A stretch of DNA of 64,000 nucleotides from Natronobacterium haloterrestre (GTDB lineage: Archaea > Halobacteriota > Halobacteria > Halobacteriales > Natrialbaceae): assembly GCF_900112205.1 (NCBI RefSeq), contig NZ_FOKW01000007.1:186001-250000 (forward strand), read 5' to 3'. The notes beneath the pieces were generated by a model that was not told the origin of the DNA, made no database searches, and saw only the letters and a list, made by a program, of their open reading frames with translations. The position numbers and the translations under genes were made by a program. Below are positions 869-57,987 of the stretch, piece after piece (position 1 is the stretch's first letter; the number at the start of each line of letters is the position of its first letter).

Positions 869-1252
869 ATGAGCGACGAGTCGATCGACGACCGGTTCCG
901 GATCACCGTCACCGTGACTGACGAGGAAACGATTCTGGACCTCGTCGATCGCGTCGACGACGTCGTCGACGCCCGCGTCGTCCCCGACGGTGGGGCCGAC
1001 GACCTCGTCCCGCCACAGAACCGTCCCTCGAGCGTCCGGGTCGATCTCCGCGACCTGACGCCGAAACAGTGGGAAGCCCTCGAGTTGGCGTTCAAGCGAG
1101 GATACTACGACCAGCCCCGATCGGTCGACCTCCAGGCGCTCTCCGAGGAGCTCGATATCTCGAAATCGGCGGTCTCCCAGCGGCTCCGCTCGGCCGAGGC
1201 TACGGTCGTCGAGAGCGTCCTCGAGGGAGCGATGTCGGCGTCGAACGGCTGA
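869..1252 (+). CDS. HTH_10 (bacterio-opsin activator type) transcriptional regulator, short form
   Basis: A 127-residue protein. An N-terminal half (about 1-65) could be a small sensing domain. The C-terminal HTH_10 domain starts at LTPKQWEAL, continues through GYYDQP, and ends with a recognition helix carrying SKSAVSQRLRSAE. This signature is shared with bacterio-opsin activator and DmsR-like regulators of haloarchaea. The protein lacks the long GAF/PAS part of Bat. It is divergent from the copper-type ATPase and convergent with a second HTH_10 gene (1410-2099), so the three probably form one regulatory neighbourhood. The effector is unknown. Confidence 0.85.
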   Translation: MSDESIDDRFRITVTVTDEETILDLVDRVDDVVDARVVPDGGADDLVPPQNRPSSVRVDLRDLTPKQWEALELAFKRGYYDQPRSVDLQALSEELDISKSAVSQRLRSAEATVVESVLEGAMSASNG

Positions 1253-1409: not shown

Positions 1410-2099
1410 TCACGACGAGAGAAACGATCTGAGCAACTTCGACTCCGCCGCGTTGAGTCGCTGTGAGACGGCCGATCGCGAAATTTCCAGTCTATCCGCA
1501 AGCTCCTGAAGGTCCGTCCGCCGGGGCCGGTCGTAGTAGCCCAATTCCACCGCCAGTTCGATCGCCTCCCGCTGCTTGGCCGTGATGTCGGCTGCGTCGA
1601 CCGACGGCTCGTCCCGCTCGGCTCCGGCTCCGGCTTCGGCTTCGTCGGTAGTGATTCGCTCGAGTCGCACCGAGCCGCCGGTTTCGCGGATCGCGGCGAC
1701 GATGTCGGTAATCAACTCCCGGTCGCGAACGACGATCGTGAAGACGAGCGATCCGTCCCTGATGGACTCGAGCGAGAAGACGCAGTCGAAGGCCGAGATC
1801 GCCGGGCAGACACAGTCCGATCCGATGTCTGCCGAGGTGTGGATCCGCTCGCCACCGCTGCCCTTTCCCGTGGTCCCGGTCCCGACCCCGGCCCCGTTCC
1901 CGGTCCCGTTTCGCGACGCGACCGTCACTTCGCTGTGACAGGTGCGACAGTCACCGGCACACGACAGTGTCTGGGAGACCTCCGCCGCGTCCGGGGCCTT
2001 CCGGGCGAGCGGACAATCCGGCGGGTCGACGAGTAGCGTCGCCTCGAGCGGAGTGCCCCTCGACTCCGGACTCGTCGCTGTGGAAGCGTCGGTGGCCAT
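1410..2099 (-). CDS. Cysteine-rich HTH_10 transcriptional regulator (candidate metal sensor)
   Basis: A 229-residue protein from the ATG at 2099; an upstream ATG at 2147 would overlap the AT-rich promoter (TATATG near 2125) and add unlikely sequence. The N-terminal third carries many cysteines (PDCP, SCAGDCRTCH, then SDCVCP and FDCVF), broken by a Gly/Thr linker encoded by a GGTCCC-like repeat. A middle alpha/beta region resembles the partner domain of other HTH_10 proteins. The C-terminal HTH_10 domain runs from ITAKQREAI to SRSAVSQRLNAAE. The cysteines and the nearby copper-type ATPase suggest metal sensing; this is inference. It could instead sense redox or act on unrelated genes. Confidence 0.85.
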   Translation of the reverse strand: MATDASTATSPESRGTPLEATLLVDPPDCPLARKAPDAAEVSQTLSCAGDCRTCHSEVTVASRNGTGNGAGVGTGTTGKGSGGERIHTSADIGSDCVCPAISAFDCVFSLESIRDGSLVFTIVVRDRELITDIVAAIRETGGSVRLERITTDEAEAGAGAERDEPSVDAADITAKQREAIELAVELGYYDRPRRTDLQELADRLEISRSAVSQRLNAAESKLLRSFLSS

Positions 2100-2282
2100 G
2101 TTCGTATCCACCGCACTCGAGCGAATATATGATCGGTCACGTTCCAACTGGGTGGGAACCGACGGCAGGTGTAGCGGAGAGACGCTTCCCGTCCCTACAC
2201 GAGCGCGACCGAGGACGGTTGTCGAACGAGCGGAAACGGAAGGAAAACGAGACGAGGGATGCCGAGACGAAGGATGACTGGA

Positions 2283-3638: not shown

Positions 3639-4628
3639 GTGTCGGGGCAACGACGAACGCGAACCGCGTGTGACGGCTGTGATCGGACGGTCCCCGAAGC
3701 GGAGGCGACGACGGTGACGATGCCCGGCGGGGAGCGGGTGACCTGCTGTCCCGAGTGTGCCGAACACGCGCGGGCGGTGAGGGACCGGGCCGGCGACCGC
3801 TCGGCGTCGTCCGATTCGGCCCGCACCCGTTCCGGTTCCCGTACTCGGTCGACCGCTACCTCCCCCGGTTCCGGCGGCTCCGAACCACAGGCCGGCGACT
3901 CCTCGAACGCCGGGCGGACCGGCTCCTCGAGCGCCCGCTCCGGGAGTTCTACCCGGGTCACGGAGTCGACCGGCAACTCCTCGATCGATCACCAGCGAGC
4001 CACCTGCGACGGGTGTGCCCAGTCGGTTCCCGAGACGGACCTCGAGACGCTCATGGTGACCGACGGGACGACGCTCTCCTGTTGTCGGTCGTGTGCGATC
4101 GAGGCTGCGAAACGGGACGACGTGTTCCGGCCGGGCGGCGTGGACCGCGATAGCGGATCCGGGCCCGACTCGAGCACCCGGACCGAGACGGGGACGACGA
4201 CGGACACGGCGGGCGGCTCGAGTTCCCGCTCCGACTCGAGTGACGACGACGGTATCGATGGCGGCGGCTCCCTGCCGACCGACGACCGCGACTACGACCG
4301 GGACCGAAACCGGTGCACGCAGTGTCGCGACGCCGTCGCCGTCGAACGCTACCGCGTCACGACGATCGACGGCCGAACCGAGTGGCTCTGTCCCGCCTGC
4401 AAGGCCGAGGCCGAGGAAGACGGCATCCTCGAGTCGGTGGCCATGCGTACGACGCGGGCCCGCGAGGTCCTCGGCGTGGGGGACGACGCGACGCTCGAGG
4501 AGATCCACGAGGCCTACCGGGTGCAGGTCAAGCGAGCGCACCCCGATCGACGGAGCGGTAGCCGCTCGGCGTTTCAGCTGGTCACCGACGCCTACGAGCG
4601 GTTGCGAGAAGCCGAGGACGACGCGTGA
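3639..4628 (+). CDS. Multi-zinc-ribbon protein with C-terminal J domain
   Basis: A 329-residue protein using a GTG start, supported by a TATA-like box about 27 bases upstream. Three zinc-binding modules are visible: C11-C14 with C36/C37/C40; a second CDGC...CCRSC unit near residues 122-155; and a third CTQC...CPAC unit near residues 226-254. Ser/Thr/Gly-rich linkers separate them. The last ~55 residues form a J domain with the HPD motif at residues 301-303, so it should stimulate an Hsp70 (DnaK) ATPase. Canonical DnaJ has the J domain at the N-terminus; this order is reversed and no client-binding domain is seen. The zinc modules may recruit nucleic acid or protein substrates (inference). Confidence 0.8.
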   Translation: MSGQRRTRTACDGCDRTVPEAEATTVTMPGGERVTCCPECAEHARAVRDRAGDRSASSDSARTRSGSRTRSTATSPGSGGSEPQAGDSSNAGRTGSSSARSGSSTRVTESTGNSSIDHQRATCDGCAQSVPETDLETLMVTDGTTLSCCRSCAIEAAKRDDVFRPGGVDRDSGSGPDSSTRTETGTTTDTAGGSSSRSDSSDDDGIDGGGSLPTDDRDYDRDRNRCTQCRDAVAVERYRVTTIDGRTEWLCPACKAEAEEDGILESVAMRTTRAREVLGVGDDATLEEIHEAYRVQVKRAHPDRRSGSRSAFQLVTDAYERLREAEDDA

Positions 4629-4739: not shown

Positions 4740-5360
4740 TTACTGCCGGCGGCCGTTCGGTTCCTCGCGACCGAGGTAGCCGATCGTCCCCGGGTCGAAA
4801 TAGTACCGCGAGCCACAGCCGTCACAGTCGGCCGACAGCCGGTGGCCGTTGCGGTGGAGTTTCCAGAGCTTCGTCTGATCCCGGTCGATCTCGAGGACGA
4901 CCGGCTGATCACAGTTCGGAACCGTACAGGGAAACTGCACGTACCAGTTGGGCACCGACAGCGCGCCGAGGGGCGCGAGTTCGCTGCGGAGCCGACTGAG
5001 CAGGTTGAACACCGTCACCGAGGGATTCTCCCGATCGATCGCGACGCCCTCGGCGTCGTCGACGAAGCCGGCGCGTCGCTTTTCGCTGTCGTACATCGGA
5101 ACGATCGGGATCCCCTTCGCTCGGGCGTAGCCGATCTCCTGATGGATCCACTGGTTGTGCTCCGAGCGGTCGGTCAATACTGCGACGACGACGTCGCTGT
5201 TGGCGATCCGGCCCTCGAGTCGCTTCCGCGAGCGGCCCGACTCGACCTCCTCGAGGGCGACGTGGACTCCGATTGGGAAGTTCTTGACCGTAGCGAACAG
5301 CTCCTGGACGAGTTCGACGTCGCCCGGCGCGTGCGAGACGTAGAGCTGTTCCCCCGGCAT
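4740..5360 (-). CDS. TIR-domain protein with C-terminal zinc ribbon
   Basis: A 206-residue protein. Residues 4-125 form a TIR fold: LYVSHAPGD at the start (beta-A), a Glu/Ser/Gly-rich loop near 37-43, NSDVVVAVLT (beta-C/D), and NQWIHQEIGYARAKGIPIVP. The last resembles the SARM1 segment that carries the catalytic glutamate; the equivalent here is E75. The C-terminal part has C145, C150, C179 and C182, a probable zinc ribbon. TIR domains of this type can cleave NAD+ or make signalling nucleotides, often in antiviral defence, but some only bind proteins. It lies 27 bases downstream of the unknown 5388-5819 gene in the same direction. The role is inferred. Confidence 0.82.
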   Translation of the reverse strand: MPGEQLYVSHAPGDVELVQELFATVKNFPIGVHVALEEVESGRSRKRLEGRIANSDVVVAVLTDRSEHNQWIHQEIGYARAKGIPIVPMYDSEKRRAGFVDDAEGVAIDRENPSVTVFNLLSRLRSELAPLGALSVPNWYVQFPCTVPNCDQPVVLEIDRDQTKLWKLHRNGHRLSADCDGCGSRYYFDPGTIGYLGREEPNGRRQ

Positions 5361-5387: not shown

Positions 5388-5819
5388 TTAATTTACGTGA
5401 TCCTCACCCGTAGTTACGGTCTCGAGGACGCGCTCGGAGAACTCGACGTCGGAGAGGCCGATCCCGAGCCGATCGAACCAGTCGGCCTCGACGTGCCAGC
5501 GCCCGCGCAGGTCGCCGTCCGTCGTCAGCGAGGTCGCCTCGAGTCGGCCGGGGGTCCACTCCCGCTCGTCGGCGATCGAGAGCAGGGTTCGGACGACCGC
5601 GCCGACCTCGTCGCTCGTGACGACCGGGGGTTCCGCGACGGCCTCGTATTCGAGGGCGAACGCGGGACGTGTGCCCCCGCTCGCCTCGATCTCGCCGTCC
5701 TCCTCTTCGCCATCCTCCCCTTCGCCGTCCTCGTCCAGTCGCTCGCACGACAGCACGTAGATCCCGTGGCTCATGAGTCGGTTCTCGAGCGCGACGGCCA
5801 CCGGTCGCTCGTCGGTCAT
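5388..5819 (-). CDS. Uncharacterised acidic haloarchaeal protein
   Basis: A 143-residue protein; the ATG at 5819 gives an acidic, haloarchaeal-type N-terminus, whereas the open frame upstream to 6173 is arginine-rich and overlaps tpiA. It contains a Glu/Asp/Gly-rich insertion near residues 29-45 and a C-terminal segment with WHVEADWFDRLG. I do not recognise a family. It lies 67 bases after tpiA and 27 bases before the TIR gene, so it may be co-transcribed with both. Confidence 0.75.
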   Translation of the reverse strand: MTDERPVAVALENRLMSHGIYVLSCERLDEDGEGEDGEEEDGEIEASGGTRPAFALEYEAVAEPPVVTSDEVGAVVRTLLSIADEREWTPGRLEATSLTTDGDLRGRWHVEADWFDRLGIGLSDVEFSERVLETVTTGEDHVN

Positions 5820-5886: not shown

Positions 5887-6531
5887 TCAGAGCGGATCGA
5901 CCAGATCCTCGAGCGCGGCCCGCGGATCGTCGGCCTTGGCGACCCCGCTGGCGAGCAACACGCCCTCGGCGCCGAGGTCGCCGGCCGCGACGACGTCGTC
6001 ACCGGTACTGATCCCCGCGCCACAGAGCACGGAGACGTCCGGGTCGACGTTCCGGGCGGCCTCGACGGCATCCTCGACGACCTCGGGGTCGGCCTGGCTG
6101 ACCGGGGTCCCCGTCCCGATGAGTTCCGGCGGTTCGACGGCGACGGCGTCCGGGCCGAGCGCCGCCGCGGCACCGATCTGTTCGGGGTTGTTCGCGCAGA
6201 CGACGGTCTCGAGGCCTGCGCGCTCGGCAGCCTCGACGGCGCCGTCGATGTCCGCGAGTTTCAGCCGTCGTTCGGAGTGGTTGATCAGCGTCCCGTCCGC
6301 CCCCGCGTCGGCGAGCGACTCGGCGAGCGCGTGACCGGTGTTGCTCCCGTAGTCGATCGGGTCGACGTGCTGGGCCCAGGTTTCGACGCCGGTTTCGGCC
6401 ACGCGCTCGAGGTGGGCCGCCTGCGGGGCGACCGCCAGCCGGGCGTCAGTCGCTTCGTCGACGTCGCGTACCGCCGTCGCGACGTCGACCGGATCACACG
6501 GATACGTCTTCAGGTTGACGAGGACGAACAT
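5887..6531 (-). CDS. tpiA: Triosephosphate isomerase
   Basis: A 214-residue TIM barrel, the short archaeal form. It interconverts glyceraldehyde-3-phosphate and dihydroxyacetone phosphate in glycolysis and gluconeogenesis in the cytoplasm. The active-site residues are visible: N6 and K8 in NLKTY, H85 in NHSERR, and E133 in [12 protein letters not shown]. The phosphate-binding loop CGAGIS is near residue 170. Length matches archaeal enzymes of about 210-230 residues. It sits in a run of minus-strand housekeeping genes. Confidence 0.96.
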
Positions 6532-57006: not shown

Positions 57007-57987
57007 ATGGACGAGGTCGACGAGCCGTCGATCGGATCCCGGGACGGCGGGACGGACTCGAGTCCCTCGATCGCTCCGCCGGCCGCGGAACCGGCGGGGG
57101 CGGAACGCGTGTCCGACCCGAGCGACGCGTTCCAGGCCCTCGGCAACGAGATCCGGATGAGTATCCTGGATACGATGCTCGAGCGGACCGACGGCGACGG
57201 CCCGTCCCGGGTCTCGTTCTCGACGCTGTTCGAGGCATCGGACGTCGATACCTCCGCCGGGTTCGCCTACCACCTCGAGCAACTCGTCGGCCTCTACCTC
57301 CACCGACACGACGACGGCTACGAGCTAACCTACGCCGGCGAACGGATTGCAAGGACCATCGCGACGGGAACGTACACCCACCGCGTCGATCAACCGCCGG
57401 TCGAACTCGAGGGCCCCTGCCCGTTCTGTGATCGGCGGGACCTCGAGGCCCGGTCGGCCGACAACGTCGTGACGATTACCTGTGGCGACTGTGGCCGATC
57501 GCTGTTGCGACTCGGCGTCCCGCCTGCAGGCGCCGAGGCCCACGGCGACGAGTTCCCCGCCGCGTTCGACCGATATCATCGCCACCGACTCGGACTCGCC
57601 GCCGACGGGGTCTGTCCCGACTGTAGCGGCGACGTCTCCGGACGGCTCGTAACCCCGAGGGCCGCCGTCGCCGACGAACTCCCCACGGAGTACGCCGAGC
57701 ACGTCCAGGTGGAGTTCTCGTGTCACAGTTGCGGCATCGAGTTGCGGTGTCCCGTGACGCTCGCCGTTCTCGATCATCCAGCCATCGTCTCCTTCTATCA
57801 CGAACACGGTGAAGACGTCTCGGAGCGGCCGATCTGGAACGTCGGCCACGAGTGGGCCGAGACGATCCTCTCGGAGGAGCCACTCGCCGTTCGCGTCGTC
57901 GCCGAACTCGAGGGGGACGTGCTCGCGCTCTACGTCGACGAGCACGCATCGGTCGTCGACGTACAGCGTTCGTCGGCCGACGAGTGA
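57007..57987 (+). CDS. ArsR-like winged-helix protein with zinc ribbons (HTH plus DUF7351-like)
   Basis: A 326-residue protein. A winged helix at about 38-115 (ALGNEIRMSILDTMLE ... HLEQLVGLYLHRH) is followed by a zinc-ribbon domain with CPFC...CGDC (about 137-160), CPDC, and CHSC...C. The rest is beta-rich. This is a common haloarchaeal regulator layout of ArsR-like HTH and DUF7351/DUF7347-type C-terminus. The ligand is unknown. It is convergent with psmA. Confidence 0.82.
   Translation: MDEVDEPSIGSRDGGTDSSPSIAPPAAEPAGAERVSDPSDAFQALGNEIRMSILDTMLERTDGDGPSRVSFSTLFEASDVDTSAGFAYHLEQLVGLYLHRHDDGYELTYAGERIARTIATGTYTHRVDQPPVELEGPCPFCDRRDLEARSADNVVTITCGDCGRSLLRLGVPPAGAEAHGDEFPAAFDRYHRHRLGLAADGVCPDCSGDVSGRLVTPRAAVADELPTEYAEHVQVEFSCHSCGIELRCPVTLAVLDHPAIVSFYHEHGEDVSERPIWNVGHEWAETILSEEPLAVRVVAELEGDVLALYVDEHASVVDVQRSSADE

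What the first reader, a model, noticed from the sequence alone, without database searches (positions are those of the whole stretch)
4740..5360. TIR domain with catalytic-type glutamate fused to a zinc ribbon
The TIR core has NQWIHQEIGYARAKGIPIVP. Its glutamate E75 sits where SARM1-type TIR NADases have their catalytic glutamate. A C-terminal four-cysteine zinc ribbon (C145, C150, C179, C182) is an unusual partner. A small TIR-zinc protein could be a stand-alone effector that destroys NAD+ or makes a signal nucleotide, in defence or stress. Catalysis and role are inference.
Basis: partly seen in the sequence, partly recalled or inferred. Interest (0 to 1): 0.72.

Follow-up and report, generated by a model that had tools for sequence, protein, structure and literature searches.

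The report
Conserved archaeal TIR–zinc domain protein
The gene makes a small protein that joins a TIR enzyme-type domain to a four-cysteine zinc domain; the same two-domain protein is kept as one stable, slowly changing copy in most Natrialbaceae salt-loving archaea and in many methane-making archaea, so it looks more like a core cell component that may cleave NAD than a typical mobile anti-virus gene.

Summary
It is real and strongly conserved. 87 of 101 sampled genomes of its family (Natrialbaceae) carry exactly one copy, and full-length TIR+zinc relatives occur in 47 methanogen genomes. E75, G77, R125, W139 and all four cysteines are invariant in all 133 sequences aligned. AlphaFold plus structure search places it with SARM1, SPARTA, AbTir and ThsB TIR domains. 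'Catalytic-type glutamate' is well supported, though no activity was tested. 'Stand-alone' holds: methanogens show no conserved gene partner. 'Defence effector' is weakly supported: the haloarchaeal gene sits at a fixed housekeeping locus downstream of tpiA (86/90 loci), is under purifying selection, was not found in phage or viral collections, and where missing is lost cleanly. New lead: the haloarchaeal zinc domain resembles the Hsp33 redox-switch zinc domain by profile comparison (probability 94-96%; five control zinc families at most 31%), but structure comparison did not confirm it. Best reading: an uncharacterised core archaeal TIR family that cleaves an N-glycosidic bond of NAD or a related nucleotide under control of a zinc module.

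The parts
4740..5360 (-). TIR-zinc protein, 206 aa (whole gene)
4971..5360 (-). N-terminal TIR domain, about residues 1-130
   Evidence: PF13676, AlphaFold and PDB searches
5136..5138 (-). E75 codon, predicted catalytic glutamate of the WxxxE motif (W71 codon at 5148-5150)
   Evidence: 133/133 conserved; aligned to AbTir WxxxE
4761..4961 (-). C-terminal zinc domain, residues 134-200, Cx4C-x28-CxxC (C145, C150, C179, C182)
   Evidence: 4 Cys in 133/133; spacing; model pLDDT 90; Hsp33-like profile match
5388..5819 (-). small uncharacterised gene between tpiA and the TIR gene, same strand, about 27 bp from the TIR start; ATG near 5819
   Evidence: sequence read; no Pfam match for the longer ORF
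5887..6531 (-). tpiA, triosephosphate isomerase; constant upstream neighbour
   Evidence: PF00121, TIGR00419; same strand in 86/90 loci
3639..4628 (+). convergent neighbour: zinc-knuckle plus J-domain protein
   Evidence: PF00226; 70/90 loci

Best explanation
A stable core gene of Natrialbaceae (and, as a sister form, of Methanosarcinaceae and a second methanogen family) encodes a two-domain protein. The TIR domain most likely cleaves the N-glycosidic (nicotinamide-ribose) bond of NAD+ or an NAD-like nucleotide with E75 as catalytic glutamate. The C-terminal four-cysteine zinc module most likely controls when the TIR domain is active, for example by sensing oxidation or metal state, or by binding a nucleic acid or protein. 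It probably serves regulation or stress physiology rather than dedicated anti-virus suicide. Shown: gene, architecture, invariant residues, fixed locus, purifying selection. Inferred: activity, substrate, zinc binding, switching, biological role.
For: TIR_2 above gathering; top structural matches SARM1 TIR (Foldseek E 1.2e-5) and SPARTA, ThsB, AbTir (Z 11.8-13.2). WxxxE aligned to AbTir, where E208 is required (PMC11374754). E75 in 133/133, W71 in 95/95 haloarchaea, S9 (AbTir S140) in 90/95. Both domains are kept together in two distant lineages. Single copy in 87/101 family genomes; fixed locus next to tpiA, adk and hisC; purifying selection; clean loss in 13 genomes. Archaeal TIRs TcpA and TcpO are NADases (PMC10937652). 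Zinc domain resembles the Hsp33 switch.
Against: No activity measured. Two residues needed in AbTir, D167 and R151, align to A35 and Q19 here (alignment, PMC11374754). W71 is absent in methanogens, although TcpC W240A kept activity (PMC11374754). E75 is also the position of the nucleophilic Glu of deoxyribosyltransferases, so the substrate is open. Structure comparison gave Hsp33 only Z 2.2, within noise. Absence from 14/101 family genomes shows it is dispensable.
Confidence: 0.5

Rival explanations
1. Dedicated anti-virus effector: on infection the TIR domain destroys NAD+ or makes a signal nucleotide and stops the cell, as in Thoeris or other TIR immunity.
For: ThsB_TIR above Pfam gathering, weak PADLOC ThsB matches; most prokaryotic TIRs studied act in immunity (general knowledge).
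Against: Fixed housekeeping locus, near-core, slow evolution, no defence genes in the immediate neighbourhood. Not found in phage or viral collections, and the only full-length plasmid-collection hit is a 987-kb Natrinema replicon. A search for the ThsA STALD domain found nothing in the own genome or 20 relatives, but its positive control also failed, so this is inconclusive.
Confidence: 0.2
2. Redox-gated TIR (a special case of the best explanation): the zinc module is a true Hsp33-type switch. Oxidation of the cysteines releases zinc and turns NAD cleavage on or off.
For: hmmsearch of the zinc profile hits the Hsp33 zinc domain 1xjh at E=4e-5, next family 0.02. hhalign probability 96% (94% haloarchaea alone) against at most 31% for CpXC, S27e, DUF7351, MBF and DnaJ zinc ribbons. 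Hsp33 itself was not found in 247 genomes of the phylum.
Against: Methanogen zinc domains alone match CpXC (94%) and S27e (90%) better than Hsp33 (75%). First Cys pair is Cx4C or CxxC, not CxC. Structural match weak, Z 2.2. Cysteines are close to invariant in ordinary structural zinc ribbons too.
Confidence: 0.2
3. NAD-cap RNA enzyme: the zinc ribbon brings RNA and the TIR domain removes nicotinamide from NAD-capped RNA.
For: Archaeal TcpA does this in vitro and haloarchaea have NAD-RNA (PMC10937652, PMC10663502); zinc ribbons often bind nucleic acid (general knowledge).
Against: No RNA-binding test; TcpO, also archaeal, lacks the activity (PMC10937652); the TIR half is acidic, pI 5.4, though that is usual in haloarchaea.
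Confidence: 0.12
4. Nucleoside or nucleotide N-glycosidase (deoxyribosyltransferase/DNPH1-like) rather than NADase.
For: PF05014 sub-threshold hit (E 5e-4; 4e-5 in L101) with its EIGxA motif at E75; NDT and DNPH1 structures at Z 11.5-12.5, tied with TIRs.
Against: TIR_2 passes its cut-off and PF05014 does not; N-terminal VSHxxxD is TIR-type.
Confidence: 0.12
5. Non-enzymatic scaffold: the TIR domain only self-assembles or binds partners.
For: Some TIRs (MyD88, Z 12.3) are adaptors; D167 and R151 equivalents missing.
Against: Absolute conservation of E75 and G77 over 133 sequences is unusual for a pure scaffold.
Confidence: 0.12

Closest known systems
AbTir / BtTir / TcpB bacterial TIR NADases
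   Same: TIR fold, SH..D start, WxxxE with the required glutamate
   Different: D167 and R151 equivalents not conserved; matched over the TIR part only, the C-terminal zinc domain lies outside the match
SARM1 TIR
   Same: best Foldseek match; Z about 12 over 120 residues
   Different: About 20% identity; SARM1 is gated by ARM/SAM domains, not a zinc module
Thoeris ThsB (PF08937)
   Same: Domain model passes its cut-off; 6lhy Z 12.0
   Different: No ThsA partner seen next to the gene; fixed housekeeping locus
TcpA and TcpO, archaeal TIR NADases (PMC10937652)
   Same: Archaeal TIR proteins with a putative catalytic glutamate
   Different: 327 and 341 aa against 206; sequence relation not tested here
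Hsp33 (HslO) C-terminal redox-switch zinc domain
   Same: Profile match over the whole zinc domain, including the helix between the Cys pairs and CxxCgxxYxFd
   Different: CxC versus Cx4C/CxxC first pair; no chaperone domain; structural match weak

Membership tests
TIR domain superfamily (PF13676 TIR_2) | passes the curated profile score | tested here: met
   33.8 bits vs 28; 39-51 bits in eight relatives
TIR domain superfamily (PF13676 TIR_2) | flavodoxin-like TIR fold | tested here: met
   AlphaFold model; SARM1, SPARTA, AbTir, ThsB at Z 11.8-13.2
TIR NADase | conserved WxxxE glutamate | tested here: met
   E75 133/133; W71 only in haloarchaea
TIR NADase | further AbTir active-site residues (S140, D167, R151, R215) | tested here: inconclusive
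   S9 and K82 match in kind; A35 and Q19 do not (alignment; PMC11374754)
TIR NADase | NAD+ cleavage abolished by mutation of the glutamate | not testable with these tools
   needs an assay
Thoeris (ThsB) | adjacent ThsA effector | tested here: not met
   neighbours are tpiA, a small gene, a J-domain protein, DUF3054
Thoeris (ThsB) | ThsA elsewhere in the genome | tested here: inconclusive
   no STALD match in 21 genomes, but the search's positive control did not ring
Hsp33 redox-switch zinc domain | sequence profile similarity over the domain | tested here: met
   E=4e-5 to 1xjh; hhalign 96%, controls at most 31%; weaker for methanogen members alone
Hsp33 redox-switch zinc domain | CxC-x(29-30)-CxxC spacing seen in the Hsp33 set | tested here: not met
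   Cx4C-x28-CxxC in haloarchaea, CxxC-x27-CxxC in methanogens
Hsp33 redox-switch zinc domain | same fold | tested here: inconclusive
   1vq0 Z 2.2, 45 residues aligned, rmsd 3.6
Nucleoside 2-deoxyribosyltransferase | passes PF05014 score | tested here: not met
   20.6 bits vs 28.8

The most novel reading that the evidence does not exclude
A core, non-immune archaeal TIR enzyme whose NAD (or NAD-RNA) cleavage is gated by an Hsp33-type zinc redox switch: oxidative stress directly controls an NAD-consuming TIR. This regulatory logic was not found for TIR proteins in the papers searched here.
Probability: 0.12. Interest if true: 0.85.

Novelty: new variant of a known kind. Interest (0 to 1): 0.55.

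Why it matters
TIR proteins in prokaryotes are usually seen as mobile immune parts. A single-copy TIR-zinc protein kept at one housekeeping locus across a haloarchaeal family, and kept as the same two-domain unit in methanogens, suggests an old physiological use of TIR chemistry. It gives simple, testable proteins (206 and about 186 aa) for asking what TIR enzymes do outside immunity, and whether a zinc module can gate them.

Tried and rejected
Phage records: no match. Viral contigs with the family alignment: none confirmed. Plasmids: only a 987-kb Natrinema replicon and a TIR-only hit from a Megaira plasmid; methanogen query none. Foldseek with the zinc domain alone: nothing at E<0.7. Single-sequence Pfam scans of the zinc domain are not specific, hitting 120 families weakly. 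CpXC was considered for the zinc domain: sub-threshold in Pfam, 23% by hhalign for the whole family but 94% for methanogens alone, based on only three CpXC sequences. Conserved operon partner in methanogens: none found. Gene calling by composition in GC-rich loci was unreliable and was replaced by tblastn with window genes. The query for the small gene before the TIR gene was out of frame over part of its length, so its count (16 loci) is a lower bound and is not used. The TIR-versus-tpiA distance correlation is only moderate (r 0.59 against 0.83 for tpiA and MBF), so vertical descent is argued mainly from the fixed locus. No literature on a TIR-zinc ribbon NADase or TIR-Hsp33 fusion was found in the held papers.

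Full report
What is there. Window 4740-5360 on the minus strand is a 206-aa ORF with an ATG start. Residues 7-90 match TIR_2 (PF13676, E 5.3e-8) and 17-93 match ThsB_TIR (PF08937, E 2.2e-5), both above their cut-offs; nucleoside deoxyribosyltransferase PF05014 matches below its cut-off. The genome is haloarchaeal: the nearest named relatives are Natrialba, 75-78% identical. PF13676 finds this one TIR_2 protein in the genome.

Distribution. In 391 genomes of the class, 94 have a match, always one per genome: 87 of 101 genomes of the window's own family (Natrialbaceae, judged from Natrialba contigs that recur among the G handles) and 7 of 290 others. A profile search of the phylum found full-length TIR plus zinc homologues (profile positions about 4-193, E 1e-9 to 1e-16) in 47 genomes of two further families, f13 and f27. 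The methanogen proteins read MITKVYISHCEQDE...VNQEIGLAVG...KLDWLKIKCPYCGEEMTQY...CSYCQ...LDPRTFRP.

Conservation. In 95 distinct haloarchaeal sequences W71, E75, G77, N27, R45, R125, W139 and C145/C150/C179/C182 are invariant. Adding 38 methanogen sequences, E75, G77, R125, W139 and the four cysteines stay at 133/133, while W71 becomes variable. Cysteine spacing is Cx4C-x28-CxxC in all 95 haloarchaeal and CxxC-x27-CxxC in all 38 methanogen sequences. dN/dS is 0.02-0.18 in sixteen pairs, with low dN in both domains.

Structure. AlphaFold with 75 homologues gives pLDDT 82.9. Foldseek's best PDB matches are SARM1 TIR (E 1.2e-5), SPARTA TIR-APAZ and Cat1, with deoxyribosyltransferases also under 1e-3. 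VIA-align gives Z 13.2 (SPARTA), 12.3 (SARM1), 12.0 (ThsB), 11.8 (AbTir) and also 12.5 (a deoxyribosyltransferase). The family profile finds AbTir, BtTir and TcpB by sequence; the alignment puts W71-x3-E75 on AbTir's WTNYE, whose E208 is needed for NADase activity (PMC11374754). From the same alignment, AbTir S140 maps to S9 (90/95), R215 to K82 (mostly basic), D167 to A35 and R151 to Q19. Both D167 and R151 are required in AbTir, so activity is likely but not assured.

Genomic context. In 90 haloarchaeal loci with flanks, tpiA lies just upstream on the same strand in 86; hisC, adk, a CDP-alcohol phosphatidyltransferase and an MBF-like HTH protein precede it in 73-75; a convergent zinc-knuckle/J-domain gene follows in 70. 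In the window the TIR start is about 27 bp after a small gene that follows tpiA. In 13 family genomes without the TIR gene the rest of the locus is intact apart from the J-domain gene in most of them, so the TIR gene is lost cleanly and is dispensable. In methanogens the neighbours vary. The immediate neighbours give no defence hit beyond generic HTH models, and phage and viral collections gave no relative. This is the opposite of the usual pattern of a mobile defence island.

The zinc module. Modelled alone it is confident (pLDDT 90; strand, strand, helix, strand, strand, strand). Its profile hits the Hsp33 redox-switch zinc domain 1xjh at E 4e-5, with the next family at 0.02. Against an alignment of Hsp33 C-termini, hhalign gives 96% for the whole family, 94% for haloarchaea and 75% for methanogens; controls (CpXC, S27e, DUF7351, MBF, DnaJ zinc knuckles) are at most 31% for the whole family, but CpXC (94%) and S27e (90%) beat Hsp33 for methanogens alone. 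Structural comparison lists Hsp33 only at Z 2.2. Hsp33 was not found in 247 genomes of the phylum, with the search ringing in 8 bacterial controls. The link is a lead, not a proof. Hsp33 releases zinc and forms disulfides on oxidation (PMC7448276), so a redox gate is a natural hypothesis.

Interpretation. Best supported is a core archaeal TIR enzyme with a zinc control module, probably cleaving the nicotinamide-ribose bond of NAD+ or a relative. Archaeal TcpA and TcpO show that archaeal TIRs can be NADases and that TcpA can also remove nicotinamide from NAD-capped RNA (PMC10937652). The defence reading is possible but loses weight from distribution and locus. No step of the chemistry was measured.

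Limits. Only the own phylum could be searched genome-wide. Taxon names for G handles are inferred. The zinc is inferred from cysteines. No assembly or ligand modelling was possible.

Noticed in passing
window 3639-4628 (+): Protein with three CxxC-type zinc knuckles and a C-terminal J domain, convergent with the TIR gene in 70/90 loci. It is missing from 11 of 13 loci that lack the TIR gene (Fisher p 2e-5, not corrected for relatedness; a single deletion could remove both).
   Followed up: partly
window about 57409-57954 (+): DUF7351 (PF24042), a haloarchaeal family with 14 copies in this genome and only 1 in one congener; strong paralogue expansion.
   Followed up: no
window 869-1252 (+) and 1410-2147 (-): Two HTH_10 (bacterio-opsin activator type) regulators close together, the second with a DmsR_N-like N-terminal domain.
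   Followed up: no
L148 genome (G511) and L140 genome (G527): Some methanogens carry two or three TIR matches: the conserved TIR-zinc protein plus other TIR proteins, useful for contrasting core and accessory TIRs.
   Followed up: no
L208 (Qingshengfaniella alkalisoli Hsp33): This bacterial Hsp33 ends its zinc domain with YVLDPTTLGF, nearly the YYFDPATIGF of the archaeal TIR-zinc proteins.
   Followed up: no
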